NCBI RefSeq assembly: GCF_000332175.1
Contig: NZ_KB235914.1
Coordinates: 2,538,868 to 2,602,867 of the forward strand
DNA from: Pseudanabaena sp. PCC 6802
Lineage (GTDB): Bacteria; Cyanobacteriota; Cyanobacteriia; Pseudanabaenales; Pseudanabaenaceae
Reading direction: 5' to 3'
Length of the DNA: 64,000 nt
The notes beneath the pieces were generated by a model. It had not been told where the DNA came from and did not search any database. It saw nothing but the letters and a program-made list of their open reading frames with translations. Below are positions 21,367-52,250 of this stretch, piece by piece. Position numbers and translations under genes: made by a program. Within the stretch, counting starts at the first letter, position 1. The number at the start of each line of letters is the position of its first letter.

Positions 21367-21708
21367 CTAAGCTGCTTGTGCTACTTGGTGTAAACTTTTT
21401 GCACAAAGACGACAAGCTTCAGCACATCGCTTACAGCGATCGTCGTGAGATGCGTGCTTATCGCATTCTTGAGCGCAGAGTTCGCAGGCTTTGGCACAGG
21501 CAACACAAACTTCTTTACAGAGGCTCGATCCCCGCAGCATGAAGCGGGCACACAATGTGCACAAATCAGCACAGTCCTGACAGAGGCGGATGCATTCAGC
21601 CATCATTGACGTATGCTCTCCACCCAGGCAAGTGCTGGCGCAGATTTCACATTCTCGCAAGCAATCCAAACAATCTCGAATGCAAGTATCCAGTGTTGCA
21701 GTTGTCAT
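21367..21708 (-). CDS. Cys-rich four-helix-bundle copper storage protein (Csp, DUF326)
   Basis: This 113-aa cytosolic-type protein has 21 cysteines, most in CxxxC and CxxC spacing along four helices (for example CIRDCLDCLRECEIC), the design of Csp proteins that pack many Cu(I) ions inside the bundle. The ATG at 21708 has GGAG upstream; an extension to 21732 adds no typical residues. A CopR-type repeat lies 253 bp upstream in the right orientation, tying it to the copper regulon far to the right. No signal peptide, so cytosolic Cu(I) storage is likely. Confidence 0.88.
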   Translation of the reverse strand: MTTATLDTCIRDCLDCLRECEICASTCLGGEHTSMMAECIRLCQDCADLCTLCARFMLRGSSLCKEVCVACAKACELCAQECDKHASHDDRCKRCAEACRLCAKSLHQVAQAA

Positions 21709-22103
21709 AGTAAAACTCCAAATTTGTGTCAATTGATTGTGTAGGTCTTAGCTACATTCACACTCTAGACAAACGTTTGTATTAAGCATGAATGCCAAAA
21801 CGGTGTTCATGAGTGGATTGCAATCATCTTCATATGAGATTGGCGCTCAATAAAATCTCCATCTCATAGATGCATTTGAGATGCTATGAAAAGTAAAAGC
21901 GCTAAATTTAGCTGAGATATGGAAAATTTATTCCAATGTTTATAAGGATAGCGAAACAAGATGAAACCAGGATGAAATTTTCTGCTGTTTTCTCACTTTT
22001 ACATAGAAGCGATCGCACTACTCGTTCCCAACTTTTCAATCATTTGACTCAATTTGGCACACTGTTACTTCTACGGCAGAGTTTTTGAATTATTTCAATT
22101 AGA
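21709..22103. other. Intergenic region upstream of csp with control signals
   Basis: This 395-bp stretch holds no credible gene. It contains the CopR-type box at 21961-21977 and an inverted repeat CATCTCA/TGAGATG (21860-21866 and 21877-21883, 10-bp spacer) that could be an operator or hairpin in the csp leader. The rest is AT-rich. Confidence 0.5.
21961..21977 (-). promoter_or_regulatory. CopR-type box upstream of csp
   Basis: On the minus strand this reads TTTCAT-CCTGG-TTTCAT, an exact TTTCAT-N5-TTTCAT direct repeat, oriented toward the copper storage gene. It is one of six such boxes in the window. Confidence 0.75.
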
Positions 22104-26707: not shown

Positions 26708-27892
26708 TTAACGAGTTGGTTGCAGGTCACCAATACGAATAGATAGGGAAACGATCTGACTACCCCGCCGTAGTTTCACCTGCAAAACCTGATTCACCTG
26801 ACCGCTTTCCACAATGCGTTGCAACTGCTCCGCTGTAGTAATGGACTGTCCGTTAATGTCAACGATGACATCTCCCGGGCGAACGCCTGCTGCGCCTGCT
26901 GGGGTATTGGGAGGGGCTTGCAGTACCACCACCCCGTCGATCTCTGGCAGTTGTATAGGGGCATTGGGGGCACTGTTGTTCTCTCTTGCTATATGTGGCG
27001 TTAGGGTGATCATGTGAATGCCGAGATAGGGATGAGCCACTTGTTTCCCATCGGCAAGCGCAGTCGCAGCAGCTTTAGCGATATCGATCGGAATGGCAAA
27101 TCCAATGCCTTGGGCTTCGGCTCGGATAGCGGTGTTAATGCCAATCACTTCTCCAGATTTATTCAGTAAGGGACCGCCAGAGTTGCCGGGATTAATTGCT
27201 GCATCCGTTTGAATCAAGTCTAGGCGCTTGTCGGGCATACCTATCTGGGAACTGGAACGGCTGAGATTGCTAATAATTCCCAATGTTACCGTGTTGTTAA
27301 GACCTAATGGATTGCCAACCGCGATCGCCCAATCCCCTACCCGCACCTTGCTAGAGTCACCTAATGGGGCAACAGGTAATGCCTGACCCGTAGGGTTAAT
27401 CTTTACCACTGCCAGATCCATTAGCAGGTCTGCACCTCTCACCTCTCCCCGAAATTGTCGCCCATCGGTAAGGGTTACAGTCACCTTGTCTGCTCCTCGC
27501 ACAACATGAGCATTGGTCAGAATTAAGCCACTTCGATCTGTAATAAACCCAGAGCCAATCCCCCGCTGCAATTTTTGTTGAGGAACCAGATCGGCATCCG
27601 TCAATCCAAGAAACTGGCGGAGAATTGGGTCGTTTAAAGCGGGGTCAGGAGCAAGGCGAATCGTTTGTTCTGTGTCAATCCGGACGACAGCCGTTCCAAC
27701 TTTTTTAACCGCAGTGGCAACAAACTCGCCCTCTAAACTAAGCATAGGAGGCTGGAATGTTCGATTGGTGAAGTTTTGACTGGGGCTCAAAGTCTTTAAA
27801 GTTATAACAGCAACTCCAGCACCAATTAAACCTGCCAAACTATAGCCAACTATTTGAACTAAAGGAAACATTTTGCGTTTTTCAGAAGCCAT
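26708..27892 (-). CDS. HhoA/HtrA-type periplasmic serine protease with PDZ domain
   Basis: This 394-aa protein has an N-terminal anchor (VGYSLAGLIGAGVAVITL), a trypsin-like domain with catalytic His (TNAHVVRGAD), Asp (MDLAVVKI) and Ser (NPGNSGGPLLN), and one C-terminal PDZ domain (about 285-390, GVVVLQAPPNTPAGAAGVRPGDVI). It is the size of cyanobacterial HhoA/HhoB/HtrA. It degrades or refolds damaged exported proteins. Inclusion in a metal island suggests protection from metal-induced misfolding. Confidence 0.9.
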   Translation of the reverse strand: MASEKRKMFPLVQIVGYSLAGLIGAGVAVITLKTLSPSQNFTNRTFQPPMLSLEGEFVATAVKKVGTAVVRIDTEQTIRLAPDPALNDPILRQFLGLTDADLVPQQKLQRGIGSGFITDRSGLILTNAHVVRGADKVTVTLTDGRQFRGEVRGADLLMDLAVVKINPTGQALPVAPLGDSSKVRVGDWAIAVGNPLGLNNTVTLGIISNLSRSSSQIGMPDKRLDLIQTDAAINPGNSGGPLLNKSGEVIGINTAIRAEAQGIGFAIPIDIAKAAATALADGKQVAHPYLGIHMITLTPHIARENNSAPNAPIQLPEIDGVVVLQAPPNTPAGAAGVRPGDVIVDINGQSITTAEQLQRIVESGQVNQVLQVKLRRGSQIVSLSIRIGDLQPTR

Positions 27893-28034: not shown

Positions 28035-29276
28035 TTAACAACCTCGATGGTGGGATGGGCGATCGCGGTGCGTGGATTGGGAAATACAGATTTCGTCTGT
28101 TGGTTGAAAAGAGCCGACCAAGAGTTTTCGCTTGAATGTTCCACCCTGCGCTACAGTCATGGCTGAAATATCGAGGGTGAATTCTTGACCGGGCTGTAGT
28201 TGCTGGTGATGAATTGTGACAGCGCGTTTCACTTCATAAATCGGTGCCCAGGGACAGCAATAGTAGTGCCCCAAGCGCGTTCCCCAGCGGTCTTTGGCGT
28301 AGGAGATCGCCCCTTGGGCTAAAGCCGCATCGATCGCTGCCTGAATTTCCAGCGTGCGTTCCGGGTCAGGATCGTATTTCCAAATTGTCGCGATCGCTGC
28401 CTTCGCCTCAGTATTCCGCTGAAATTCATCCCGTGCGGCAGGATCGGTCAGGCACCAAGGATCGAACCCTACCTCACCGGGAAGGGGGCGCTGAAGTTGG
28501 TTTGAAGTTGAAATAAGCTGAGTGGTAGCCGATGGATTATGCTCCAGTAGTTGTGGCATCGCCAGAATTTGCCCCAGGTGATAGTAGGACGCAAGGGCAG
28601 CTTTTGCGTATCGTTCAACTTTGGGATGAACTGCTTGGGGCAGGTTCGGTTTCCAGAGTTGTTCGGCATAGTCTGCTTCACTATTGGCGGCTGCCAGCAG
28701 TTGACGAATCTGATGGATAGTGGATTGCTTTTCTGCGGGAATGGTTTCGGCTTCAAAGGTCGCGATCGCTGCTTCCGCATGAGTCCGAATCAGACGGGTG
28801 GCTTCTACCATGCCATCCAGATGGGTATTTGGGCAGGACTCCGACTCCTCCCAGGGTGGCAGATCTGCTGGAAGGTATCCGTCAACCTGATAAGCCGGAT
28901 TGTATTGCGCCTGATGTGCCCGATTGAGCCAACTTTCAACCTGGCTGTAGTAAGCAAGTGCCTGTTCTGCTGTCATGGGTGGAACGTAACCCACCGTTGA
29001 CGGATCGGCTTGATAATCGGCCTCTAGAAGCCGATCGCCCAGAGTTTGCAGTACAAAAGCATTCCAGGCACAGAGAAATTGCGCCTGACTTGCCAGATCG
29101 ACCGTCCAGGGATTCGAGCCCTGAATCTTCAATTCCAGGCGGCGATCCTCTACCTGTTTGAGCAAATCATAAACGGTTTGACCCGCCCGTCGATAGGCTT
29201 CGAGCGTGTCAGCGGCAACCTCGCCCTTTGCCAGGGCAACTAGTTTTCCAATGATTCCCTGTCGTTCTGCCATCAT
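28035..29276 (-). CDS. Unrecognised family with GxYYCCPWAPIY motif (long form)
   Basis: This 413-aa soluble protein has no family I recognise. The N-terminus (GIIGKLVALAKGEVAADTLEAYRRA) and the C-terminal third (PGEVGFDPWCLTD; GHYYCCPWAPIYEVKRAVTI; FTLDISAMTVAQGGTFKRKLL) recur in the shorter protein at 29864-30394. The middle (about 60-255) is unique and helical, rich in Ala, Glu and Gln. The CC pair and CLTD Cys could bind metal or form a disulfide. A very strong AAGGAGG precedes the start; the second ATG (29273) is equally likely. UspA and stress genes surround it. Confidence 0.7.
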   Translation of the reverse strand: MMAERQGIIGKLVALAKGEVAADTLEAYRRAGQTVYDLLKQVEDRRLELKIQGSNPWTVDLASQAQFLCAWNAFVLQTLGDRLLEADYQADPSTVGYVPPMTAEQALAYYSQVESWLNRAHQAQYNPAYQVDGYLPADLPPWEESESCPNTHLDGMVEATRLIRTHAEAAIATFEAETIPAEKQSTIHQIRQLLAAANSEADYAEQLWKPNLPQAVHPKVERYAKAALASYYHLGQILAMPQLLEHNPSATTQLISTSNQLQRPLPGEVGFDPWCLTDPAARDEFQRNTEAKAAIATIWKYDPDPERTLEIQAAIDAALAQGAISYAKDRWGTRLGHYYCCPWAPIYEVKRAVTIHHQQLQPGQEFTLDISAMTVAQGGTFKRKLLVGSFQPTDEICISQSTHRDRPSHHRGC

Positions 29277-29342
29277 ATTTCCTCCTTGTCATTCCATTTG
29301 TCGAGAGCGCTGAACTCAGGTGTGAGCAGGCAAAGTGCTAAG

Positions 29343-29882
29343 TCAGGTTACAGCCTTCCATGGACTTGATTCGCTGGGATGAGATGAAGTTGCCATTTTG
29401 ACTTGAGACTGCACCGTAAGAACTGCACAGGGAGCATGGTGGAGGACATAATTGCTGACACTGCCCATTAATGTCTCGCTCAGTCCAGAAAGCCCCCGTC
29501 GTCCCATGACAATTAGATCGGCATCCCAGGTGCAGGCAGTATTGCAAATGGTTTTACCTGGGATACCGGGGCTTTGGACACATTCTGTGTGTACGCCTGC
29601 GGCAGTTGCAGCTTTTGAGTGCGATCGCAGCAGATCCAGCCCTTTCTTAGCAAATGCTTCCCACTGTTTTTGATACTGCTCCACCATTTCACTACCGGTT
29701 CCTGACTGATAAGGGTCCGGGTTGTAGAGTTTAGAAATGTTTGGACAACCCTCTTCGTCAATAGATAAGACATGCAATAGCACCATGCTGCCTTTGTTGG
29801 CTTTCGCTAGGGCAATGGCTTCATCAAACACGCGCTTGCTATCTTTAGACATATCCATAGCTACTAAAATCTTTTGAAACAT
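29343..29882 (-). CDS. Universal stress protein (UspA family)
   Basis: This 179-aa protein has the Usp fold: start KILVAMDMSKDSKRVFDEAIALA, and ATP-binding motif DLIVMGRRGLSGLSETLMGSVSNYVLHHAPCAVLTV, matching G-2x-G-9x-G(S/T). It is therefore probably of the ATP-binding type. Its start overlaps the end of the upstream gene by 19 bp, with GGAGG inside that gene, so the two are translationally coupled. It is slightly longer than usual because of a C-terminal tail. Confidence 0.88.
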   Translation of the reverse strand: MFQKILVAMDMSKDSKRVFDEAIALAKANKGSMVLLHVLSIDEEGCPNISKLYNPDPYQSGTGSEMVEQYQKQWEAFAKKGLDLLRSHSKAATAAGVHTECVQSPGIPGKTICNTACTWDADLIVMGRRGLSGLSETLMGSVSNYVLHHAPCAVLTVQSQVKMATSSHPSESSPWKAVT

Positions 29883-30394
29883 AGAACCTCCTTTGGAAAG
29901 GAACTAGTCAGAATCTGGCGCTTGAACGCACCGCCTTTTGACACTACTTCAGCCGAAACATCAAAGGTAAACTTCTGAAACCTCGCTAGCCGTTGGTTGC
30001 CAATCGTGACTGAGCGCCTAGCTACATAAATTGGTGCCCAAGGACAGCAGTAATAGTATCCAATCCGAGTACCTGCATGAGTGAGTGGGAAAGCAATATC
30101 TCCCCACCATAGAGCAGCGATAATTTCTGTCTGAATTGCCAATGTCTTGTCAGGTTCGGGATCGCACTTCCAAAGTGCAGCGATCGCTTCTATTGCCTTA
30201 GGGTTGTCATACAATTTGGCATAAGCTACTGAATCGGTCAGGCACCAGGGATCGAAGCCAGGTTGACCTGGTAATGCCAGCATCCGATCGCGGCCTGGGT
30301 AATCTGCTCTTCGATCGGCTTCGGATGTTTGAATCGCAAACTCACCTTTAGTAAGGTCGAGGAATCTTCCCAAAATATCTAGTCGTAATATCAT
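29864..30394 (-). CDS. Unrecognised family with GYYYCCPWAPIY motif (short form)
   Basis: This 176-aa protein (ATG 30394, AGAGAG upstream) is a compact paralog of the 413-aa protein on the other side of uspA. It shares the N-terminal ILGRFLDLTKGEF-type segment, PGFDPWCLTD, GYYYCCPWAPIY and GGAFKRQIL but lacks the central 200 residues. The family is therefore a two-part domain into which the long form has an insertion. Function unknown. Translational coupling to uspA suggests a stress-related role. Confidence 0.7.
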   Translation of the reverse strand: MILRLDILGRFLDLTKGEFAIQTSEADRRADYPGRDRMLALPGQPGFDPWCLTDSVAYAKLYDNPKAIEAIAALWKCDPEPDKTLAIQTEIIAALWWGDIAFPLTHAGTRIGYYYCCPWAPIYVARRSVTIGNQRLARFQKFTFDVSAEVVSKGGAFKRQILTSSFPKEVLCFKRF

Positions 30395-30449: not shown

Positions 30450-30950
30450 CTATTCTTGGTCTGACTCAACTTTCGTTAAAGCTGCCTGTAGTTTTGCCTC
30501 ATCATCTTTCGATAATGAGGTGCGCAGAACTTTACCCTCAAACTTGCTCAGATCGTCCAGAACTTTATCTGGTGTAGACTTTCTCACCAGGATAAAGAGG
30601 GCAGACGTTCCTGGCTCTACCGTATTGCCAATTTCTCGAATAAAGTTATCATCAATGCCGATATCGGTTAGCGCTCCCGAAACTGCACCAACGGTAGCGC
30701 CAACCGCCCAACCCAATAATGGATTGAAGAATATCAAACCAAAAAGCAGTCCCCAGAAACCTCCACTCAATGCACCAGAAGCTACTAGTTCCTGGGTTTG
30801 CTTGATTTTGACTTTGCCTTCTCGATCCCTGACAACGATCGCAGCATCTTCTAAGTCAATTAGATGCTCCCGTTGTAGTTTCATGAGGTCAATCAGAACC
30901 TCGTCTGCCTTGAACTCATCTTTAAAGCCAATAACAATTAGATCGCTCAT
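30450..30950 (-). CDS. DUF1269 membrane protein
   Basis: This 166-aa protein starts MSDLIVIGFKDEFKADEVL, has DAAIVVRDREGKVKIKQT and a central Gly-rich membrane pair (GALSGGFWGLLFGLIFFNPLLGW and VGAVSGAL), then EPGTSALFILVRK. This is the complete DUF1269 pattern. The family is common in stress clusters, but its biochemical role is unknown. It lies in the same minus-strand run as uspA. Confidence 0.85.
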   Translation of the reverse strand: MSDLIVIGFKDEFKADEVLIDLMKLQREHLIDLEDAAIVVRDREGKVKIKQTQELVASGALSGGFWGLLFGLIFFNPLLGWAVGATVGAVSGALTDIGIDDNFIREIGNTVEPGTSALFILVRKSTPDKVLDDLSKFEGKVLRTSLSKDDEAKLQAALTKVESDQE

Positions 30951-31007: not shown

Positions 31008-31688
31008 CTAAGTATCGTGGTGAGACTGCTTAGAATTCGATAGCTTTTTCTGATTTGTTTGCCCCCAGCGAGGGAAAAAGGCTGGTGTAACCGCAGCATA
31101 ACGGGCATACTCCTCACCAAATTCTGCTAAAGCGTCACGCTCTTCTTGACGTGCCAGACGAACGTACATCCATACCAGAATTGGGAACATCAACAGAGTC
31201 AAGATCGTAGGCCATTGCAGCAAAAATCCAAACATGATAATGATGAAAGCAATATACTGGGGATGGCGAATCGTTGTGTAGGGGCCTGCTATCGCCAGGG
31301 TGTGGCTGCGTTGGGCTTTATATAGTACCTCCCACGCAGATGACAGTAAGACAAAGCCGCCAAAGATAAACACCAAGCTGAGGATATGGATCGGCTCGAA
31401 ATGCGGATCGCCCTTCTGCCCGAGCAGCGTCCACCAGAGGTGGCCAGCGTTATGGGAAAGGACATCTAACCCAGGATAACGGCTTTGCAACCAGCCTGAG
31501 AGTAAGTAAATGGTGAGAGGAAAGCCGTACATCTCTGTAAATAGCGCCACGATGAAGGCTGAAAAGGCTCCGAACGATCGCCAATCGCGGGGACTGCGCG
31601 GCTTTGTAAAGCTGAAAGCAAAGATGATAAATACTAGAGAATTGATAATCACCAGGAACCAGAGGCCGTAAGCGGGGATATCTTTCAT
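31008..31688 (-). CDS. Isoprenylcysteine carboxyl-methyltransferase-like membrane protein
   Basis: This 226-aa protein has six hydrophobic segments and the ICMT/PEMT C-terminal signature: RHPQYIAFIIIMFG, then RLARQEERDALAEFGEEYARYA. These form the SAM site and membrane re-entry of the family. Bacterial members methylate unknown lipids or thiols and are common in heavy-metal islands next to YHS and DUF2933 genes, as here. Confidence 0.82.
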   Translation of the reverse strand: MKDIPAYGLWFLVIINSLVFIIFAFSFTKPRSPRDWRSFGAFSAFIVALFTEMYGFPLTIYLLSGWLQSRYPGLDVLSHNAGHLWWTLLGQKGDPHFEPIHILSLVFIFGGFVLLSSAWEVLYKAQRSHTLAIAGPYTTIRHPQYIAFIIIMFGFLLQWPTILTLLMFPILVWMYVRLARQEERDALAEFGEEYARYAAVTPAFFPRWGQTNQKKLSNSKQSHHDT

Positions 31689-31745
31689 GACGTTAAGTCT
31701 CCTAATTCTTAAATAGCTCGACTGATAGAACTCTAGAGATAAGCT

Positions 31746-32003
31746 TCAACGCGAGCGATCGTCACTGCCGCCACCATGTCCGCCATGTCCACCGTGCATA
31801 AATAGATGCATGAGCGGGCAAGCCAGGAGAAATAGCCAGGGCAGGACAGGGATCAGATGTGCAAAGTGTTCGGTAATCAAAAAGAAGGCGATGATGCCTA
31901 AGAAAAAATACAAGGCAATTCGAGCTGGCCTCAGCCATCCATTACTCATATCAGATCGATCGCGATCGTCTTGGTGAACCTCTCGATTGTGTTGGTGAAC
32001 CAT
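31746..32003 (-). CDS. DUF2933 small membrane protein
   Basis: This 85-aa protein has a polar start (HQHNREVHQDDRD), two membrane segments (IALYFFLGIIAFFLITEHFAH and LPWLFLLACPLMHLFMHGGH) and a Gly/His tail. LACPLMHLFMHGGHGGHGG is the hallmark of DUF2933. Function unknown, but it regularly travels with copper and silver resistance genes. GGAGG precedes the start. Confidence 0.85.
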   Translation of the reverse strand: MVHQHNREVHQDDRDRSDMSNGWLRPARIALYFFLGIIAFFLITEHFAHLIPVLPWLFLLACPLMHLFMHGGHGGHGGGSDDRSR

Positions 32004-32025
32004 AGAAACCTCCTAGTTTGATAAA

Positions 32026-33885
32026 TTAAGGCAGATACGCATTTGTGACATATTGCTGCACCATGCGGTGGGTGTTAAAAAATGAGGCATTCAACGCGAT
32101 CGCCTGCCGCATCACATCAACCCAGCGTTCGTGCTCTCGATAAAACATTGGCGCGATCGTGTTTTTCAACTTTTGATATAAGTCCTCTGCATCCTGTCGG
32201 TTCAGGGCATCTGAACCAGAGAACTCTGGCTCCTTGGAACCAATAGACCAGCCCGTTATCCCTTCGATATGCCCTTCAATCCACCAGCCATCCAGAACGC
32301 TGAAACTGGGAACGCCGTTGTGTGCGGCTTTCATGCCAGAGGTTCCCGATGCTTCTAGAGGTCGCTGTGGCGTGTTCAGCCAGAGGTCGACTCCAGAGAC
32401 GATCGGCTTAGCCAGATCCATGTCGTAGTTTTCCAAGAAAATTACGGGGATTCGATCTCGTAGCTGGCGAGAGATATCGAAAATATGCCGAATTAAGTCT
32501 TTACCAGAATTGTCTCTGGGATGTGCCTTACCCGCAAAAACAAACTGCAAGGAGCCAACCTGTTCGGCAATCTCTAGCAGTCGATTAATATCTGAGAAGA
32601 TTAAATCTGCCCGCTTGTAAGGCGTTGCCCTACGAGCGAAGCCAATTGTCAGAGTATCAGGAGAAAGCGAAAGATTGGTTCGCTTCTGAATTTGTTCCAG
32701 GAGATGAACTTTAGCTACTACGTGAGCTTCCCAAATCTCCTGCTGGGGAATGTTGATGGCATGCCTTAGCATGGATGGGTCGTTGCTCCAGCCAGGAATG
32801 TATCGGTCGTAGAGAGATTTAAAGCTGTCACAAGTCCACGTCCAGGAGTGAACGCCATTAGTGATGTGGTGGATGGGGTAGCCAGGAAACATTTCTTGCG
32901 AGACTTCTTCATGCCTCTTAGCCACGCCGTTAACATAATGGCTCAGGTTCAGCCCCAGCAGGGTCATATTGAGGCGATCGCGCCCTGCCAGCATTTGCAG
33001 GATATCGAAAGGCACAACTGGTTCCAAAATAGATTGCACCAGATCGTAGCCGAATTGATCGTGTCCAGCAGGAACGGGTGTATGGGTAGTAAAGACACAT
33101 CGCTCTCTAACGTTGCCGAAATCCCACACTTCTGTCTGTTGCCCGTTTTGTTCCTTTAAAAGCTCCAGGACTAGCAGACTAGCGTGCCCTTCATTCATGT
33201 GAAATCGCTCGATACCGCTATATCCGAGGGCATGAAGCATTCTGACTCCACCAATACCCAGCAACATCTCTTGAGCTAGACGATAGCGCTCATCTCCGCC
33301 GTAGAGGAAATCTGTCAGGGTACGGTCATTATCAGTATTTCCTTCAACGTCGGTGTCCAGCAAAATCAAGGGGACAATATATCTACTTAAGCCGACAATG
33401 TCATACTGCCAGGCTCGAACTTGGACTATCCGTTGCTCAATTTCGACGCTGACTGTTTCAGGCCAAGGGCGCAAGAAGCGTTCTGGATGCCATTGAACAG
33501 GATGTTCTCCTTGTCCACCCCATTCATCTAGTTTTTGATCGAAATAGCCTTTGCGATAGAGCAGACTCACCCCAACGCTGGGTACTCGCAGATCGGCACA
33601 GGATTTCAGGGTATCGCCAGCCAGTACACCTAAACCACCGCTATAAGTTGGCATAGCAGAACCAACTGCAACCTCCATTGAGAAATAGGCAACCCGCCTG
33701 TTTTCTTTGGCTTCATCGTAACTTGCGGTCACAAGTGCGCTAATATACCTGTCTGGCTGCTCAAAGAACTTGCTTTGGCAGAATTCCGAACAGAAGTGGA
33801 CTTCTCGATCGTTGTGGAAAGCTCTTAGTGCTTTATCTGGCTGAACTGTCATGCCACAAACTGGATCTTTCAGAATCGTACTCAT
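32026..33885 (-). CDS. YHS domain fused to alpha-glucan phosphorylase
   Basis: This 619-aa protein has residues 1-50 forming a YHS domain (KDPVCGMTV ... HFCSEFCQSKF), a small metal-binding module. It is followed by a short-type alpha-glucan phosphorylase (about 60-619) with YFSMEVAVGSAMPTYSGGLG, HMNEGHASLL, and the pyridoxal-phosphate Lys region EASGTSGMKAAHNG. The enzyme part would release glucose-1-phosphate from glycogen. The fusion implies that metal binding may tune glycogen breakdown. The next two genes upstream also carry YHS domains. Confidence 0.88.
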   Translation of the reverse strand: MSTILKDPVCGMTVQPDKALRAFHNDREVHFCSEFCQSKFFEQPDRYISALVTASYDEAKENRRVAYFSMEVAVGSAMPTYSGGLGVLAGDTLKSCADLRVPSVGVSLLYRKGYFDQKLDEWGGQGEHPVQWHPERFLRPWPETVSVEIEQRIVQVRAWQYDIVGLSRYIVPLILLDTDVEGNTDNDRTLTDFLYGGDERYRLAQEMLLGIGGVRMLHALGYSGIERFHMNEGHASLLVLELLKEQNGQQTEVWDFGNVRERCVFTTHTPVPAGHDQFGYDLVQSILEPVVPFDILQMLAGRDRLNMTLLGLNLSHYVNGVAKRHEEVSQEMFPGYPIHHITNGVHSWTWTCDSFKSLYDRYIPGWSNDPSMLRHAINIPQQEIWEAHVVAKVHLLEQIQKRTNLSLSPDTLTIGFARRATPYKRADLIFSDINRLLEIAEQVGSLQFVFAGKAHPRDNSGKDLIRHIFDISRQLRDRIPVIFLENYDMDLAKPIVSGVDLWLNTPQRPLEASGTSGMKAAHNGVPSFSVLDGWWIEGHIEGITGWSIGSKEPEFSGSDALNRQDAEDLYQKLKNTIAPMFYREHERWVDVMRQAIALNASFFNTHRMVQQYVTNAYLP

Positions 33886-33926
33886 GTTTTTTACCCGTCA
33901 TAGGGAATATTCATCATTTAATTTAG

Positions 33927-36107
33927 TTAATCAGTGGATAGCTTCAGACCTTTCAGCAGCGATGAGTTGACAATCACTGACAGAGAACTCAGAGCCATAG
34001 CAGCCGCTGCAATGATTGGGTTCAGGAACCCTAGAGCCGCAATAGGAATTCCTACCGTGTTATAAATGAAGGCCCAGAACAGATTCTGTTTAATCTTGAG
34101 CATCGTGGCACGGGACAGGCGGATGGCTGCCACGACATCGCGCACGTCATTTTTCACCAGAATGATGCCACCTGTTTCTTTCGCAACATCTGCCCCAGAA
34201 CCGATGGCAATCCCAATATCAGCCGTTGCTAAGGCTGGCGCATCGTTGACTCCATCGCCCACCATCGCCACAACCTCACCCTGTTTCTGTAGGTCTTGCA
34301 CGACCTTGGCTTTATCTCCTGGTAGGACTTCAGCAATTACCCGCTGAATGCCTAATTGATGGGCGATCGCATCCGCAGTCCGATGATTATCTCCGGTCAG
34401 CAACACGACCTTAATATTCTCTTTGCGTAAAGCTGCGATCGCTTGACTAGCTTCAGGCTTGAGCGTATCGGCTACAGCGACGATCCCGATTAAAAGACCA
34501 TTGCAGCCCACCAGCATAGCTGTCTTCCCTTCTGTTTCTAGACGGCTCAGCGTACTCTCAGTTGATGGATTAAGGTAATAGCCTTCCTGTTGAAACAGTT
34601 GGCGATTGCCCAGGATAACTCGGTTGCCGTTTGCTTCTCCGCGAATGCCGCGCCCGGGAATCGCCTGGAAATTCTTCACATCAGGGATTGACAAATTCTG
34701 GTGTCTGGCTGCCCGCACGATCGCCTCTCCTAGGGGATGTTCTGAACCTACCTCCACAGCAGCGGCTAGCTTTAAAACTTCGCCTTCTGGCTGCTCTGCC
34801 AGAGCAATAATATCCGTGAGGCTGGGTTCTCCCCGTGTCAGCGTTCCAGTCTTATCGAAAACCACCGTAGTAAGTTTCTCAGCTCGCTCCAGGATTTCGC
34901 CACCTCGGATTAAAATCCCTGCCTCCGCCCCTTTGCCTACACCTACCATCAGAGCCGCTGGTGTCGCAATTCCCAAAGCACAGGGGCAGGAGATAATTAA
35001 TACAGCAATGAAAGATAGCAAAGCCTGTGGGAAATTACCCAGGATCAGCCAAACGATAAATGCTAGTAGAGCAATGCCTACAACAGCAGGGACAAAATAG
35101 CCAGTAACCTTATCGGCAAGCCGCTGTACTTGAGCAGTGCTAGCTTGAGCTTCCTCGACAAACTTGATAATTTGAGCTAGGGCTGTTTCTGCCCCCACGC
35201 GCGTAGCGCGAAAGCGGAAGCTTCCTGTTCGGTTCAAGGTGCCGCCAATTACCTCTGCTCCTGTTCCCTTTTCTACAGGGATCGACTCCCCAGTTAGCAT
35301 GGACTCATCCACGGATGATAAGCCATCAAGGACGATACCATCTGTTGGCACTTTCTCACCCGGACGGACAACGATCGTCTCTTCAACCATCACGCTCTCG
35401 GCGGGGATTTCCATCTCTATCCCGTCTCGGATTACCCTGGCTGTGGCGGGTTTTAAATCAAGGAGCTTGCGTACTGCCGCCGATGAATTCTTCTTAATGA
35501 TTTCTTCCATGTACTTGCCCAGCAGTACAAAGGCAATTATTATGGCGGAAACCTCAAAGTAAACGCTGCGCTCTTCGACTCTGACAGGCAGGATACTAGG
35601 GAAAAAGACTACCACTACGCTATAGAGATAGGCAACGCTAGTTCCCAGAGCAATCAGAAAGTCCATATTAATGCTGCGGGTGCGAATGGCATTCCACGAC
35701 CCCACATAGAACGACCACCCACCGATAAACTGGACTGGCGTAGTCAAGATAAACAGCCACACTCCCCAGGTAAACCAGGGCAGAAATGGAATTGGAACCC
35801 AAGTCACAAGAGTTACACCTGCTGCCAAACCGATAAAAGCCGCCGCCCGCAGAATTGCCAGGAACAAAACTCCTGTCAGCGCAATTGTGACGCGGGTACG
35901 CATAGACTTGAGTTCGGCTTCGGGCGACTCGAAGGTACGCTGGCAACCCTGGCTGCAAAAATAATAGGTACGCCCACCCCGTTCCGACTTTAAAGCTGTC
36001 GCTTTCGGCACCATCATGCCGCAGATCGGGTCTTTAGCCATCTCCTGTGGGCTTGATGATACAGTGCTTTCGTGTCTGTGACCGTGCTGTCCGTGATTGT
36101 GAGCCAT
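33927..36107 (-). CDS. Cu+-type P1B-1 ATPase with N-terminal YHS domain
   Basis: This 726-aa pump has a His-rich start, then a YHS domain (KDPICGMMV ... [12 protein letters not shown]) instead of the usual CxxC heavy-metal domain. The core has CPC ([12 protein letters not shown]), DKTGT (Asp418), SEHPLG and GDGVNDAP. The last helices carry YN ([11 protein letters not shown]) and [12 protein letters not shown], the Cu+/Ag+ P1B-1 signature. It exports cytosolic Cu+ to the periplasm. It lies between a small YHS gene (6 bp upstream) and the YHS-phosphorylase fusion. Confidence 0.9.
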
Positions 36108-36113
36108 TCTTAG

Positions 36114-36293
36114 TTATTCTCCCTGCGACTCAAAAGTTTGCTGGCAGTGCGTACTGCAAAAATAGTAAGTCTGCCCCTTTCTCTCTGACTTGAGCGCAGT
36201 AGCTTTCTCGACTGTCATGCCGCAGATCGGGTCTTTTGCGGTTTTACTTTGCGAGCCGTCCTGTTCGCGTTTGCGGCTAAAAAATCCAAACAT
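36114..36293 (-). CDS. Small stand-alone YHS-domain protein
   Basis: This 59-aa protein starts at 36293 after a strong AGGAGG; an upstream ATG at 36329 is less likely. MFGFFSRKREQ leads into a YHS domain ([21 protein letters not shown] ... FCSTHCQQTF) very like that of the following ATPase. It may be a metal chaperone or trans partner of the pump. The ATPase start follows 6 bp after its stop. Confidence 0.8.
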   Translation of the reverse strand: MFGFFSRKREQDGSQSKTAKDPICGMTVEKATALKSERKGQTYYFCSTHCQQTFESQGE

Positions 36294-36458
36294 GTACAAC
36301 CTCCTGTAATATGAGTGACACGTATACAAGTTCGATGCAGTACTTCAGAAATGGGGGCAGATCGCCGCAACTGCCTTAGCGATCGCTTTGCCTGGGGAGA
36401 TTTACTTAATTTCTAATTTCTAATGCCAGCGAACGAACTGAGGATAAAATTCTCAGTC

Positions 36459-44180: not shown

Positions 44181-45812
44181 ATGACTTATTACCGCCCCCT
44201 CGCCAAGCAGCATTTCGTGGCTGGAGCATTAGTCAGTCTAGCTTTATTAGCTCTTCCTAGCGCCTATCCAGTCAGCGTACTTGCCCATGCGGGGCATGGT
44301 AGTGAGTTTGGCGGCAATAAAGCCACGCAATCCAAGGATGCGATCGCCGTCGATGCAGAAACAGCAAAGCGGATGGGACTCAAAGTAGAACCTGTCGCCT
44401 CTAAGCGCCTAGCCTTAGGGATTCAAACCACGGGGCAAATTGCGCATATGCCCGATCGCAAAGCCGAAGTCACTACCCCAATCAAAGGTAAGGTGGTGAA
44501 GCTATTTGTCAAACCAGGCGCAGTGGTGAAAGCAGGTCAGGTTTTGGCAATTCTATCTAGCCCAGAACTAGGGGAATTGCGGGTGAGTGCGATCGAAAAG
44601 CGGGCGGAAGCTGAGGTAGATCTGCGATTAGCGCAGCAAAACTACGATCGCCAGAAGCAAATAGCTACGTTAGACATAGAGCAAGCCAGAACTGAACTTA
44701 AGATAGATCGGGAGCGCTACGATCGAGACAAGGAACTGCAAGAGCGCGGGGCAATTCCCAAACGGCAGTTGCTAGAATCGGAGTCTAAATTAGCCACAGC
44801 GAAGGCCGCAGTAACTAAAGCTGAAAGTCGATTGCAGGTTATGGAAGCTGAGGCTCAGCAACAACGCGCTCAGTCTCGGGTGCAACTGAGTAATGCTGCC
44901 TATGAGGCACGTCTGCGCCAGCTTAGTGTTAATCCTAATTCCGACGGCACGATCGCGATTAAAGCCCCCATTGACGGCACGATCGCCGATCGCGAGATTT
45001 CGCTGGGACAATCCGTTGAAGAAGCGGGTAAACCCTTGATGACAATTGTGGATAGCAGCGCGGTTTTAGCCACCGCCAATGTCTATGAAAAGGATTTAAA
45101 CAAGGTTAAAGTTGGGCAGTCAGTGCGCATCAAGGTAGCTGGATTACCAGATCGCACTTTTACTGGGAAAATTACTGTAATCGGCGCTGTTGTAACGGGT
45201 GAAAGTCGCGTCGTGCCTGTCCAAGCAGAGTTAGAAAACGCCAATGGGTTGCTGAAGCCAGGGATGTTTGCAGAATTAGAGATCCTAACCGAGCGATCGC
45301 CAGAAGCAGTCTTAGCCATTCCCCAGTCGGCGATTGTGGAAGCCAACGGTCAGCAGATCGTCTATGTCCAAAATGGTAATGCCTACCAGCCTGTCAACAT
45401 CACTCTGGGTCGCAAATCGGGTGACTTAATCGAAATTAAAGATGGGCTATTTGAGGGGGATTTAGTTGTAACGCAGCGGGGGATGCAACTCTACGCGCAA
45501 TCCCTGCGGGGAGGCAAAAAAGCAGAAGATTCTAAGAGTGATACTGCTCCAGAGACTAATTTGGCAACAGTGCCAGGCAATAGTCAGATGCCCTGGTGGG
45601 TAGTCTTGCCAATCGGAGGCGCGATCGCCGCAGGAGCATTCTGGTTAGGGCGACGCACCAAACCTGCTCTGGCGACTGTGGATATTAGTGCTAATGGCTT
45701 AGGAAAAAGTACAGATATTTATGTCGATCGTTCTCAGTCTCATTCCCAACATAATTTACCTGATTCGGAAGTACAGCATGGCGATCGCGAAGATCGTCAC
45801 TCAAATAATTAG
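44181..45812 (+). CDS. copB: HlyD-type periplasmic adaptor of heavy-metal RND pump (CopB/CusB-like)
   Basis: This 543-aa adaptor has a signal/anchor (VAGALVSLALLALPSAYPVSVLAHAGHG), lipoyl half (VVKLFVKPGAVVKAGQVLA), coiled-coil hairpin (about 130-220), second lipoyl half (IKAPIDGTIADREISLGQS), a barrel domain, and a C-terminal membrane helix (WWVVLPIGGAIAAGAFWLG) plus His-rich tail. The C-terminal anchor is unusual for CusB-type adaptors. The RND gene starts 11 bp later, and a CopR box precedes the operon. In Synechocystis the matching genes are copBAC. Confidence 0.88.
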   Translation: MTYYRPLAKQHFVAGALVSLALLALPSAYPVSVLAHAGHGSEFGGNKATQSKDAIAVDAETAKRMGLKVEPVASKRLALGIQTTGQIAHMPDRKAEVTTPIKGKVVKLFVKPGAVVKAGQVLAILSSPELGELRVSAIEKRAEAEVDLRLAQQNYDRQKQIATLDIEQARTELKIDRERYDRDKELQERGAIPKRQLLESESKLATAKAAVTKAESRLQVMEAEAQQQRAQSRVQLSNAAYEARLRQLSVNPNSDGTIAIKAPIDGTIADREISLGQSVEEAGKPLMTIVDSSAVLATANVYEKDLNKVKVGQSVRIKVAGLPDRTFTGKITVIGAVVTGESRVVPVQAELENANGLLKPGMFAELEILTERSPEAVLAIPQSAIVEANGQQIVYVQNGNAYQPVNITLGRKSGDLIEIKDGLFEGDLVVTQRGMQLYAQSLRGGKKAEDSKSDTAPETNLATVPGNSQMPWWVVLPIGGAIAAGAFWLGRRTKPALATVDISANGLGKSTDIYVDRSQSHSQHNLPDSEVQHGDREDRHSNN

Positions 45813-45823
45813 GAGCGATCGCT

Positions 45824-48800
45824 ATGCTTAATGCCATTCTCAAATGGTCGATCGCGCAACGCTGGCTCGTTGTAATTATCTCGATTATCGTTAGTCTCTG
45901 GGGTTTTCGGGTCATTTCGCAGATGCCCCTAGATGTTTTCCCTAGCTTTGCACCGCCGCAGGTAGAGATTCAAACAGAAGCAAAAGGACTAGCCCCAGAG
46001 GAAATTGAATCTCTGGTTACTTTGCCAATCGAAAGTGCGATTAACGGCACACCTGGCGTGACGACGGTGCGCTCCTCATCAGCGGTGGGGATATCTGTTG
46101 TCAAAGTAATTTTTAACTGGGGTACGGATATTTACCAGGCAAGGCAATTAGTAACAGAACGATTGCAGCAAGCACGGAGCAAGTTACCCGAAGGTGTGGA
46201 GCAACCGCAAATTCAACCAATTAGTTCTCCGATTGGGGTGATTCTGAAATATAGCTTTACCTCTGATACAGTTCCCTCGATGGAAGTGCGACGCATTGTG
46301 GACTGGCAGGTGACAAATCGATTACTTGCCGTGCCAGGTGTAACTCAAATTGTCGTATTCGGCGGTGATATCAGGCAATATCAGGTACTCATCGATCCCA
46401 AAAAATTACAGGCATTTGATGTCACAATCGAAGATGTTGAAAAAGCGGCAAAAGCAGCAAATTCTAACGCTCCTGGTGGCTTCTTAACCACCTCAGATCG
46501 AGAATTGCTGATTCGCGGTGTGGGCAGAATTCAATCTATCCAGGACTTAGCTAAGTCGGCGATCAAGGCGCGAGATGGTAAACCTGTTCTTTTGGGAGAT
46601 GTGGCAGAGGTAAAGCTTGGGGCAGCCCTTAAGCGTGGCGATGCGATTGTGAATGGTAAGCAAGCAATTGTTCTGATTGTAAATAAGCAACCCCGTGCCG
46701 ACACACCAACTGTGACCAAAGCAGTAGAAGAGGCAATGAAGGAGATCGCAACTGCACTGCCCAAAGATATTCAAGTCAAGGTTACTTTCCGTCAAGAAGA
46801 CTTTATTGAGGCTTCCATTACCAATATTGAAGAAGCATTGCGGGATGGCATCATCATTGTCTCAGTCATTCTAATTCTGTTTCTGATGAACTGGCGAACC
46901 GTAATCATTACTCTCAGTGCTTTGCCCTTATCCTTAATTCTGGGTGTGATGATTCTTAACTGGGCGGGAGAGGGCATCAATACGATGACACTGGGTGGCT
47001 TGGCAGTGGCAATTGGTTCAGTAGTTGATGATGCGATCGTGGACATGGAAAATGTCTATCGCCGACTGCGCGAAAATCAAATTGCGGGGACACCCGTACC
47101 CCCTTTGCAAGTTGTGTTTAATGGCTCTATCGAAGTGCGGGTAAGCGTTCTATTCTCTACAATTATTATTGCCGTCGTGTTTGCACCGATTTTTTCCCTC
47201 TCTGGAGTAGAAGGACGCATCTTCTCACCGATGGGATTAGCATACCTTCTGTCTATCCTCGCTTCTACTTTAGTAGCACTAACCCTTACCCCTGCTTTAT
47301 GCGCGTTGCTTTTAGTAAATCGTCAGCTCCCCCCAGATGAAACATGGGTAGCAAGATTCTCGGAACGCCTCTATCACCCGGCTTTGATGTTTGCTGTGCA
47401 ATGGCCGAAAGTGGTTATCTTCTTTGCCACGGCTGCACTTGTAGCGGCGATTGTGATTCTACCTTCCTTAGGGCGATCGTTCTTGCCAGAGTTTCAAGAG
47501 CGATCGCTAATCAATGCCATTAACCTCTATCCTGGTGGTTCCTTAGAAGCTACGAATCAGGTTGGTTTTTCGATCGCGAGTGCATTGAAAGACGATAAGC
47601 GGTTCGAGGTAATTCAACTACGATCGGGCCGCGCTCCAGGCGATAGTGACGTTGGTGGAGTCAACTTTGCCGAGATGGATATAGAACTGAGTGCGGAAGC
47701 AGTACGCGATCGTAAAGGGGCAATCGAAACTCTACGTCAGGAATTTGCGAAACTTCCTGGGGTTGCCGCAAATGTGGGTGGATTTATCTCCCACCGTATG
47801 GATGAGGTGCTGTCAGGTGTACGATCTGGTATTGCCGTTAAAATTTATGGTTCCGATCTATCAGAACTGCTTAGGTTAGGACAGCAGGTAGAGCAGGTCA
47901 TGCAAGCAATTCCTGGCGTTGTCGATCTGCAATTAGAACAGCAAATTCCCATCAAGCAGATTCAAATCCAATTCGATCGCACAGCGGCGGCTCGCTATGG
48001 TTTAACCGTAGGTGAACTTTCCAACACAATCGAAACAGCAATGAACGGCAAAGTTGTCTCCCAAGTACTGGAAAAGCAACAGGTATTTGATATGGTCGTG
48101 TGGTTAGAAGAAAAGTCTCGCCGCGATCTAGAAACCATCAGCAATCTTCTAGTTGATACACCTGACGGCAAGAAGATTCCACTCGCTCAAGTCGCCAAGA
48201 TTGACTATGGTACGGGGCCGAACACAATCAATCGTGAAAATGTCTCTCGTCTGATTGTGGTTTCTGCAAATGCTACTGGACGGGACTTGCGATCGCTTGT
48301 GGATGAGATTAAGGAAAAAATCAAGCAGCAGGTGCAATTTCCCTCTGGCTACTTTCCAGTCTATGGTGGGCAGTTTGAGTCGGAGGAACGTGCTACCCAA
48401 AATTTCATTGTCTACGGCGCTCTAGCTTTCATCATTATCACCGTACTGATTTACTTTGCCGTTAAAACTATCCCCGCAACGCTGGCTATTATGATTAACC
48501 TGCCTCTAGCACTGATTGGCGGACTAATCTCAATCATGTTAACAGGGGGAGCGATCTCTGTTGCTTCTCTGGTGGGATTTATTACCCTATTTGGCGTAGC
48601 AACACGCAACGGCCTATTATTGGTGGATAATTACGACGCTAAACTTGCGGCGGGGATGTCTATGCGAGAAACGATCGTCAAGGGATCGAGCGAACGTCTT
48701 GCTGCAATCTTGATGACGGCTCTTTCTTCAGCTTTAGGGATGTTTCCACTAGTGATTAGTGGAGGAGCAGGGAAGGAGATTCTACAGCCTCTAGCTGTTG

Positions 48801-48949
48801 TAGTCTTCGGAGGTCTATTTACCTCTACAGCCTTAACCTTGCTTGTTTTACCTGCTTTATATTCCCAATTTGGCAAGTATCTGATGTCTACCCAAGCAGA
48901 GGCGATCGCTGCGACTAAATCAATCGAGTTAGAAGAAGCAAATATCTAG
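45824..48949 (+). CDS. copA: Heavy-metal RND efflux permease (CopA/CusA/CzcA family)
   Basis: This 1041-aa inner-membrane RND transporter has the twelve-helix layout with two large periplasmic loops. Start IAQRWLVVIISIIVSLWGF; helix-4 proton-relay region VAIGSVVDDAIVDMENVYRRL; second half GVATRNGLLLVDNYDAKL; end GGLFTSTALTLLVLPALYSQFGKYL. The family moves Cu+/Ag+ or divalent ions from the periplasm through the adaptor and TolC. Context (six copper boxes, CopRS) favours copper. The gene was the template of the remnant at 49513-49664. Confidence 0.92.
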   Translation: MLNAILKWSIAQRWLVVIISIIVSLWGFRVISQMPLDVFPSFAPPQVEIQTEAKGLAPEEIESLVTLPIESAINGTPGVTTVRSSSAVGISVVKVIFNWGTDIYQARQLVTERLQQARSKLPEGVEQPQIQPISSPIGVILKYSFTSDTVPSMEVRRIVDWQVTNRLLAVPGVTQIVVFGGDIRQYQVLIDPKKLQAFDVTIEDVEKAAKAANSNAPGGFLTTSDRELLIRGVGRIQSIQDLAKSAIKARDGKPVLLGDVAEVKLGAALKRGDAIVNGKQAIVLIVNKQPRADTPTVTKAVEEAMKEIATALPKDIQVKVTFRQEDFIEASITNIEEALRDGIIIVSVILILFLMNWRTVIITLSALPLSLILGVMILNWAGEGINTMTLGGLAVAIGSVVDDAIVDMENVYRRLRENQIAGTPVPPLQVVFNGSIEVRVSVLFSTIIIAVVFAPIFSLSGVEGRIFSPMGLAYLLSILASTLVALTLTPALCALLLVNRQLPPDETWVARFSERLYHPALMFAVQWPKVVIFFATAALVAAIVILPSLGRSFLPEFQERSLINAINLYPGGSLEATNQVGFSIASALKDDKRFEVIQLRSGRAPGDSDVGGVNFAEMDIELSAEAVRDRKGAIETLRQEFAKLPGVAANVGGFISHRMDEVLSGVRSGIAVKIYGSDLSELLRLGQQVEQVMQAIPGVVDLQLEQQIPIKQIQIQFDRTAAARYGLTVGELSNTIETAMNGKVVSQVLEKQQVFDMVVWLEEKSRRDLETISNLLVDTPDGKKIPLAQVAKIDYGTGPNTINRENVSRLIVVSANATGRDLRSLVDEIKEKIKQQVQFPSGYFPVYGGQFESEERATQNFIVYGALAFIIITVLIYFAVKTIPATLAIMINLPLALIGGLISIMLTGGAISVASLVGFITLFGVATRNGLLLVDNYDAKLAAGMSMRETIVKGSSERLAAILMTALSSALGMFPLVISGGAGKEILQPLAVVVFGGLFTSTALTLLVLPALYSQFGKYLMSTQAEAIAATKSIELEEANI

Positions 48950-50196: not shown

Positions 50197-50892
50197 ATGA
50201 AAATTCTATTAGTTGAAGATGAACTAGATCTCGGACGCATCATCCAAAATAGTCTCAACCAGGAAAAATATATAGTTGACTGGTTCCAAGATGGGGATCT
50301 CGCTTGGCAATATCTGGAAAGTCAAGCCACTCAGTATACGCTTGCCATCCTTGACTGGCTATTACCTGGCTTATCGGGCATCGAACTCTGTCAACGCCTC
50401 CGCGCTCAGGGTAATCCCTTGCCAATCCTGATGCTCACTGCTAAAGATGGCATGGCAGATAAGGTCGCAGGACTCGATGCCGGAGCTGATGACTATTTGG
50501 TGAAACCGTTTAAAATCGTGGAACTGTTGGCAAGGCTGAGAGCTTTACAACGGCGATCGCCACAGATGCAACCGCAGCAATTACAAGTCGGCAACCTGAA
50601 ACTGGACTTCAGCACTTCAACTGTGACCGTGCAAGACGATCGCGGTCGCCCTCAGTCGTTATTCCTAACTAACAAGGAGTTTCAGTTACTCGAATACTTT
50701 ATGCGACACCCAAATCAAATTCTGAGCCGCGATCGCCTCATGAATCAACTTTGGGAAATCAATGCCGAAACTATTAGTAACGTCGTTGCCGCCCAAGTGC
50801 GTTTATTGCGGCGTAAGCTAGGAGAATATGGTTATGACAAGCTAATTGAAACCATTCCAGGTATGGGCTACCGCCTCAACCCACCATCATGA
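50197..50892 (+). CDS. copR: OmpR/PhoB-family response regulator, CopR-like
   Basis: This 231-aa regulator has a receiver domain (phosphoacceptor Asp53 in LAILDWLLPG, Lys in DYLVKPF, acidic pair near residue 8) and a C-terminal winged helix (about 130-231, FLTNKEFQLLEYFMRHPNQILSR...VAAQVRLLRRKL). In Synechocystis the copper regulator CopR is of this class and binds TTTCAT-N5-TTTCAT; six such boxes lie in this window. The stop overlaps the kinase start by 4 bp. Rpp/Nrs regulators are the closest alternatives. Confidence 0.85.
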   Translation: MKILLVEDELDLGRIIQNSLNQEKYIVDWFQDGDLAWQYLESQATQYTLAILDWLLPGLSGIELCQRLRAQGNPLPILMLTAKDGMADKVAGLDAGADDYLVKPFKIVELLARLRALQRRSPQMQPQQLQVGNLKLDFSTSTVTVQDDRGRPQSLFLTNKEFQLLEYFMRHPNQILSRDRLMNQLWEINAETISNVVAAQVRLLRRKLGEYGYDKLIETIPGMGYRLNPPS

Positions 50893-52250
50893 ATCAGAAT
50901 CATTTATTCACATCTACTCGCTGGAGCTTGGCGAGTTCTTATACGATTGTGATGGGATTAATCCTCAGCCTTTGTGGCATAGGGCTTTATCAAACGGTAG
51001 CTCATGCCCATTTTCAGTCACAGGATCGAGAGCTGGAATCTCTTTCTGGTGTCCTACATGACAGCCTAGAACCAATTCTCAAGCAACCTGGACTGATAGA
51101 TGCCAGCGTACAGAGAGTATTGCCCAATCTCTGCATCTTAGATGAAAACTCCAAAGCATCTTGTGCCCAAGTCAATAATCTCAAGCGGCATATTCTAGGC
51201 ACGATCCAGCAAGATAATTACTATGCTCGCTTTTGGAATCTGTCAGGAGATCCTGTCGCGATCGCAGGCAATCTGCCAGAAGGCATCCCAACAAATTTAG
51301 ACACAACCACTTGGCAAACTCTTCAAACTAAAAACGATCGCTACCATCAAGTTTCGATCCTGCTTAAAAATAATCAAAACCAACCTTGGGGATACATGCA
51401 GGTAGGTCACTCGCTCAAAGAAAGCGATCGCCATCTCGCCACACTCAAATTGATTTTACTACTGGGACTTCCCATTTCTATGCTTCTTGTCGGCGGTGCG
51501 AGTTGGTGGCTAGCAGGAAAAGCCATGCGTCCCGTTTACAGTTCGTATCAGCAAATCCAGCAGTTTACGGCTGATGCCGCCCACGAGTTGCGTACTCCAA
51601 TCGCCGTGATTTGTGCAGCGGTTGAGATGGCGCTTGCCACTTCTCCATCACTTGAATCAGAAGCGGATAGCACTTTACAGACAGTCGAACGCCAAAGTAG
51701 ACGTTTATCGCAATTGGTGCAGGATTTATTACTGCTATCTCGCATGGATCGACAAGAGCAACAAGATCGGCCATCTCCACCAATTAAATTCCAGTCCTGC
51801 TGTCTCAACGATCTAATCGGCGATCTAGTAGAAGAACTTGCAGATATCGCGATCGCGGCGAAAATCAGTCTTGGTCAAGATATTCAGGTAGATTATCCTT
51901 TATTAGTCTTAGGTAATGAGGAACGGCTCTATCGGCTGGTGGCAAATCTGATTACTAATGCCATTCAGTACACGCTTCCAGGAGGGCAAGTTAAGGTGAT
52001 TCTGAAACGAGAAGATCGCTACGCGGTCATCCAAGTCCATGATACGGGTATTGGCATTGCACTTCAAGACCAACCTCATATCTTCGATCGCTTCTATCGC
52101 GTTTCTAGCGATCGCTCCAGGGCAACAGGGGGATCTGGCTTGGGCTTAGCGATTGCGCAGGCGATCGCGCAGGCACATCAGGGTAGTATCCAGGTAAAGA
52201 GCCAGATGGGTAAAGGTAGTACTTTCACAGTTCGACTACCCTTAAAATAA
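50889..52250 (+). CDS. copS: Sensor histidine kinase, CopS-like
   Basis: This 453-aa kinase has two membrane helices (near 15-37 and 185-208) bounding a periplasmic sensor domain with Cys in NLCILDENSKASC, a possible metal site. A HAMP-like region follows, then phospho-His232 in AAHELRTPIAVI and ATPase motifs NLITNAIQYT, DTGIGI and GGSGLGLAIAQAI. It is translationally coupled to the regulator. A copper-sensing role is inferred from the CopR boxes and the neighbouring efflux genes. Confidence 0.85.
   Translation: MNQNHLFTSTRWSLASSYTIVMGLILSLCGIGLYQTVAHAHFQSQDRELESLSGVLHDSLEPILKQPGLIDASVQRVLPNLCILDENSKASCAQVNNLKRHILGTIQQDNYYARFWNLSGDPVAIAGNLPEGIPTNLDTTTWQTLQTKNDRYHQVSILLKNNQNQPWGYMQVGHSLKESDRHLATLKLILLLGLPISMLLVGGASWWLAGKAMRPVYSSYQQIQQFTADAAHELRTPIAVICAAVEMALATSPSLESEADSTLQTVERQSRRLSQLVQDLLLLSRMDRQEQQDRPSPPIKFQSCCLNDLIGDLVEELADIAIAAKISLGQDIQVDYPLLVLGNEERLYRLVANLITNAIQYTLPGGQVKVILKREDRYAVIQVHDTGIGIALQDQPHIFDRFYRVSSDRSRATGGSGLGLAIAQAIAQAHQGSIQVKSQMGKGSTFTVRLPLK

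What the first reader, a model, noticed from the sequence alone, without database searches (positions are those of the whole stretch)
28035..30394. New protein family (YYCCPWAPIY) in long and short versions around uspA
A 413-aa and a 176-aa protein share both ends (KGE-type N-terminus, PGFDPWCLTD, YYCCPWAPIY, GG-FKR) but differ by a roughly 200-residue middle domain in the long one. I recognise no domain. The short one is translationally coupled to uspA by a 19-bp overlap. The invariant Cys pair and Trp/Pro core look functional.
Basis: seen in the sequence. Interest (0 to 1): 0.68.

Follow-up and report, generated by a model that had tools for sequence, protein, structure and literature searches.

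The report
Undescribed metal-island protein, long and short
A cyanobacterium carries a long and a short version of a protein that matches no described family or known structure; relatives are scattered over at least six phyla and often sit beside heavy-metal pump genes, so it is probably an uncharacterised helper in coping with toxic metals.

Summary
The 413-aa (28035-29276, minus) and 176-aa (29864-30394, minus) proteins are real homologues flanking a usp gene, with the stated 19-bp overlap. No Pfam, NCBIfam, PHROGs, PADLOC or PDB-sequence family matches. Neither confident AlphaFold2 model has a convincing PDB fold match.

One interpretive point is wrong: the Cys pair is not invariant (CT, CS and loss occur), whereas the middle domain missing from the short form holds the strictest residues (C148-x3-H152, H217-x3-E221, W71, W116, Q105).

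Full-length relatives occur patchily in Cyanobacteriota, Deinococcota, Actinomycetota, Chloroflexota, Armatimonadota and a proteobacterial MAG, some on plasmids. N-domain-only forms exist in an actinobacterium and on M. avium plasmids. The C-domain-only form was seen only here, an old duplicate with an internal deletion.

In cyanobacteria it lies in a copper/stress island, usually right after usp. Outside that island, 5 of 27 loci have a complete P1B heavy-metal ATPase within 10 kb (0.94 expected; P=0.0013), 7 counting contig-truncated ones.

Best reading: a cytosolic soft-metal-stress accessory protein with a probable Cys/His/Glu site in the N-domain. Function is inferred, not shown.

The parts
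28035..29276 (-). Long protein, 413 aa: helical N-domain (about 1-247) + disordered linker (248-260) + C-domain (263-396) + Cys/His-rich tail
   Evidence: model pLDDT 87.7; 22 genome-contig loci
28536..29276 (-). N-domain coding part; C148, P149, H152, E221, W71, W116, Q105 invariant and H217 in 23 of 24 relatives
28038..28493 (-). C-domain coding part with FDPWC and YYCCPW motifs
29343..29882 (-). usp (universal stress protein), 66 nt upstream of the long gene; usp-long adjacency kept in Chroococcidiopsis, Leptolyngbya and Cyanosarcina
29864..30394 (-). Short protein, 176 aa: N-terminal helix motif (1-30) + C-domain; overlaps the usp start by 19 nt
   Evidence: model pLDDT 81.5, core above 90
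30450..30950 (-). DUF1269 protein, directly upstream of the short gene (55 nt)
26708..27892 (-). Trypsin-like/PDZ serine protease (HhoA/DegP type), downstream of the long gene; same order on the Leptolyngbya plasmid
31008..36107 (-). Same-strand upstream genes: ICMT-like, DUF2933, YHS-phosphorylase, CPC-type YHS P1B ATPase

Best explanation
The long protein is a cytosolic accessory protein for soft-metal (Cu/Ag/Zn/Cd) stress. It has two domains. The helical N-domain probably carries a metal or thiol site formed by C148-x3-H152 and H217-x3-E221, which lie at the starts of two helices that should end on the same side of the bundle. The compact C-domain (FDPWC, YYCCPW, R383) with a Cys/His/Asp-rich tail probably binds a partner or adds ligands. 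It would buffer, sense or hand on the metal, made together with the efflux ATPase and USP. The short protein is an old duplicate that lost the N-domain; it would keep the docking parts (N-terminal helix and C-domain) and act as a partner or competitor made in step with USP. Shown: two-domain architecture, conservation, gene context, overlap. Inferred: metal binding, the role of each domain, the role of the short form.
For: At 29-34% identity across phyla C148, P149, H152, E221, W71, W116 are invariant and H217 is kept in 23 of 24. Cyanobacterial loci share a copper/stress island with a CPC P1B ATPase; the window also holds CusA/CusB-type RND genes, DUF305, DUF302, DUF326 and MerR. Outside that island: facing a P1B ATPase at 0.7 kb in a Deinococcota genome; head-to-head with arsR-P1B ATPase plus a CDF gene in Nonomuraea; beside a CopZ-like HMA protein and a truncated HMA ATPase in Thermaceae; 3.4 kb from a CPC ATPase with CsoR near in Conexibacter; ArsR, CDF, SCO, PCu(A)C and a CPC ATPase in Deinococcus NW-56; DUF326 and CsoR on the M. 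avium plasmid. Statistic: 5 of 27 loci with a complete P1B ATPase within 10 kb, 0.94 expected, P 0.0013; 7 with truncated ones, P 1e-5. C-terminal tail 29% H+C+D against 9% in the body; the M. avium form ends HHGPHSGHH.
Against: Most actinobacterial loci (Catenulispora, Planotetraspora, Actinoallomurus, A. saalfeldensis and others) show no metal gene within about 8 kb. Mobile genes gather on islands with metal resistance anyway, so context may be hitch-hiking. The C-domain Cys residues vary. One N-only form has Arg for H217.
Confidence: 0.42

Rival explanations
1. General stress or low-energy protein that works with USP and DUF1269; the metal link is only co-residence on a mobile stress island.
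For: usp lies immediately upstream of the long gene in 4 of 5 cyanobacterial island loci, with DUF1269, phosphorylase, phosphoketolase and HhoA-type protease nearby in some; the short gene overlaps usp; patchy, partly plasmid-borne distribution.
Against: Outside the cyanobacterial island no USP was seen next to it, whereas P1B ATPases and metal regulators recur.
Confidence: 0.28
2. An enzyme of unknown reaction whose active site is the invariant Cys/His/Glu/Trp/Gln set of the N-domain, with the C-domain as a regulatory part or lid.
For: Strict conservation of several polar residues plus Trp/Gln across phyla is as typical of catalysis as of metal binding.
Against: No fold or sequence match to any enzyme; context gives no substrate pathway.
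Confidence: 0.17
3. The short gene is a decaying fragment with no role of its own (about the short form only; compatible with any role of the long one).
For: Internal deletion, longest branch in the cyanobacterial clade (0.65 against 0.07-0.34), no second example found, tail cut short by usp.
Against: All 12 C-domain residues invariant in 21 long forms are kept, and 31 of 33 of those at 90%; intact frame without stop; old duplication by tree position.
Confidence: 0.25

Closest known systems
Uncharacterised accessory families of copper/silver islands (DUF305, DUF302, DUF326 four-helix copper-binding proteins, DUF2933, DUF3105)
   Same: Small proteins carried with CPC ATPases and CusAB; all five are in this window
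   Different: No sequence match to any of them; this one is larger, two-domain and without an evident signal peptide
Universal stress protein (PF00582) and DUF1269 (PF06897) genes
   Same: Adjacent and probably co-transcribed in the cyanobacterial island
   Different: The YYCCPW proteins are members of neither family
ArsR/SmtB-regulated P1B ATPase loci (cadA/ziaA type)
   Same: In Nonomuraea the gene is divergent from arsR-P1B ATPase with a CDF gene near; in Deinococcota G719 it faces a P1B ATPase
   Different: From general knowledge, the standard loci include no such protein; operator sites were not proven here

Membership tests
Universal stress protein (PF00582) | Match to the Usp profile above Pfam's cut-off | tested here: not met
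   No Pfam hit at E up to 1 for either protein; the neighbour usp hits at 1.7e-33
DUF326 four-helix bundle copper-binding protein (PF03860) | Cys-rich repeats matching PF03860 | tested here: not met
   No hit in 29 members; the ORF 21367-21732 in the window does hit
Heavy-metal-associated domain / CopZ chaperone (PF00403) | GMxCxxC motif and HMA profile match | tested here: not met
   No Pfam hit; no CxxC in either protein
Ferritin/Dps-like helical bundle (for the N-domain) | Clear structural match to a four-helix ferritin fold | tested here: inconclusive
   Dps and ferritin chains appear only at Foldseek E about 0.7-1.5; best VIA Z of any chain 8.4, within the range of common helical bundles; N-domain not folded alone
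Any PDB fold (for the C-domain) | Structural match well above background | tested here: inconclusive
   Best Z 3.0 (rmsd 7.4, 76 aligned) and no Foldseek hit below E 0.5 with a confident model; a fold that Foldseek ranked low is not excluded
Soft-metal-binding protein (functional class) | Measured binding of Cu, Zn or Cd | not testable with these tools
   Only conserved Cys/His/Glu and gene context support it

The most novel reading that the evidence does not exclude
A mobile, multi-phylum cytosolic metal sensor or carrier with a new C-terminal fold, which in this cyanobacterium has evolved a C-domain-only partner translated in step with a universal stress protein, linking metal load to USP signalling.
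Probability: 0.15. Interest if true: 0.75.

Novelty: new variant of a known kind. Interest (0 to 1): 0.5.

Why it matters
Metal-resistance islands carry many small unknown proteins. This one is undescribed in the libraries searched, has no detectable relative of known structure, spans at least six phyla and reaches plasmids of M. avium complex strains from patients. The conservation names precise residues to test, and the short form is a natural separation of the two domains.

Tried and rejected
Phage origin: no hit in phage records or viral contigs. Defence system: no PADLOC hit. Weak PDB sequence and fold hits (haptoglobin receptor, OSCP, P450, CusC helices, GPCRs, viral models) were rejected as noise. 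Invariance of the YYCC pair was rejected. A recent duplication of the long gene as source of the short one was rejected: the tree puts the short C-domain inside the cyanobacterial clade but on an early, long branch. The short form was sought elsewhere and not found. A regulator site upstream of the Nonomuraea copy: a short palindrome lies in the intergenic region, too short to count. Greedy longest-ORF gene calls in GC-rich loci gave antisense ORFs and were replaced by codon-position calls. Literature searches gave nothing on the family.

Full report
What is there. The window is part of the 4.6-Mb contig of a 5.6-Mb cyanobacterial genome. On the minus strand, in transcription order, lie DUF1269 (30950-30450), the short protein (30394-29864), usp (29882-29343), the long protein (29276-28035) and a trypsin/PDZ protease (27892-26708). 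The short gene's stop lies 19 nt inside usp, and usp's Shine-Dalgarno sequence AAAGGAGG is inside the short gene. Gaps are 55 nt (DUF1269 to short) and 66 nt (usp to long), so an operon is likely; a pattern scan found no more promoter- or terminator-like sites than shuffled sequence.

Homology of the two. The short protein matches a profile of long forms built without it at E 5e-56 over positions 250-388. Its first 38 residues alone match positions 5-30 at E 0.0009. So the short form equals the long form minus about residues 31-256. In a C-domain tree it falls inside the cyanobacterial clade (99/96) on its own long branch, 0.65 against 0.07-0.34 for its neighbours. It is therefore an old, faster-evolving duplicate, not a recent copy. 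It keeps all 12 residues invariant in the 21 long C-domains and 31 of 33 at the 90% level, which speaks for continued selection.

Family. Single proteins and alignments found nothing in Pfam, NCBIfam, PHROGs, PADLOC or PDB sequences. The one genome scan gave 22 loci, all with full-length two-domain proteins, in cyanobacteria, Thermaceae, Chloroflexi, Actinomycetota, Armatimonadetes and a proteobacterial MAG. Plasmid records add Chroococcidiopsis, Leptolyngbya, Deinococcus and an N-domain-only form on about 24-kb M. avium complex plasmids. A second N-only form is in an actinobacterium. Distribution is sparse: in sampled genomes, and counting the query genome each time, 2 of 145 relatives, 2 of 292 of the phylum, 2 of 296 Actinomycetota and 3 of 111 Deinococcota. 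No sampled member of the window's own family has it. This points to horizontal spread. It was not seen in phages or viral contigs.

Structure. The long model has mean pLDDT 87.7 and pTM 0.64: eight helices up to residue 239, a disordered linker at 248-260, then three helices and a small beta part. The short model has a core mostly above 90. Foldseek gives no PDB hit at E below 0.001 for either. The second look gives a best Z of 8.4 for the helical part, in the range where helical bundles match by arrangement alone, and 3.0 for the C-domain. This is absence of a found match, not proof of a new fold.

Conservation. In 24 aligned N-domains down to 30% identity, W71, Q105, W116, P136, C148, P149, H152 and E221 are invariant and H217 is kept in 23. 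By the predicted helices, C148/H152 start the helix at 150-176 and H217/E221 start the helix at 217-239; these two helices run the same way, so the four residues should lie at one end of the bundle (inference; distances could not be measured). In the C-domain, C340 is lost only in the D. grandis type, C341 is T or S in four rows and C275 is V or A in five. The tail after F390 is 29% His, Cys or Asp against 9% in the rest, and the M. avium N-only protein ends in a His-rich stretch.

Context. Cyanobacterial loci share one island: CPC-type YHS P1B ATPase, DUF2933, ICMT-like, DUF1269, USP, this gene, YHS-phosphorylase, MerR. The window adds CusA- and CusB-type genes, DUF305, DUF302, DUF326 and DUF3105. 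This counts as one event. Loci outside it were used as a separate test. P1B ATPases (TIGR01525) were counted in each genome or plasmid. In 27 loci, 0.94 would be expected to have one within 10 kb; 5 have a complete one (Conexibacter, Amycolatopsis, Nonomuraea copy 2, Deinococcota G719, Deinococcus NW-56), P 0.0013. Two more are cut by contig ends (Thermaceae, Microcoleus), giving P 1e-5. The Nonomuraea copy is divergent from arsR and a P1B ATPase with a CDF gene nearby. The G719 copy faces a P1B ATPase at 0.7 kb. Limits: the 10-kb cut-off was chosen after looking, lineages are not fully independent, mobile genes gather near metal resistance in general, and most actinobacterial copies have no metal gene near.

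Mechanism. Most likely the long protein is a soluble metal-stress accessory protein whose N-domain holds a Cys/His/Glu site, with the C-domain and tail as docking or ligand part. The short form keeps the N-terminal helix and C-domain but not the site, so it would be a partner or competitor matched in dose to USP by the overlap. Architecture, conservation, overlap and context are shown; metal binding and partner roles are inferred. A pure stress-island role with USP, or an unknown enzyme, remains open.

Verdict. The family is real and undescribed in the libraries and papers searched. The emphasis on the Cys pair should move to the N-domain. Functionally it is best called a new variant of a known kind, an accessory protein of metal islands, until binding is tested.

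Noticed in passing
window 32026-33885 (-): Alpha-glucan phosphorylase with an N-terminal YHS domain (E 5e-6, just under Pfam's cut-off; also in the Chroococcidiopsis and Leptolyngbya islands), an unusual fusion of a metal-linked domain to a glycogen enzyme.
   Followed up: partly
window 44181-48949 (+): CusB-like membrane fusion protein and an RND pump, with a response regulator and histidine kinase at 50197-52250: likely a copper/silver efflux locus.
   Followed up: partly
window 3836-5821 (+): A second P1B-type ATPase in the same window, about 30 kb from the first.
   Followed up: no
window 36117-36329 (-): Small YHS-like ORF next to the YHS P1B ATPase; a separate YHS gene also stands there in Chroococcidiopsis.
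   Followed up: no
L015 9998-11202 (Deinococcus aetherius pDAETH-3): The long protein is split over several frames, so this plasmid copy looks broken.
   Followed up: no
L012 6659-7543 (M. avium plasmid): N-domain-only form ending in a His-rich tail in place of the C-domain.
   Followed up: partly
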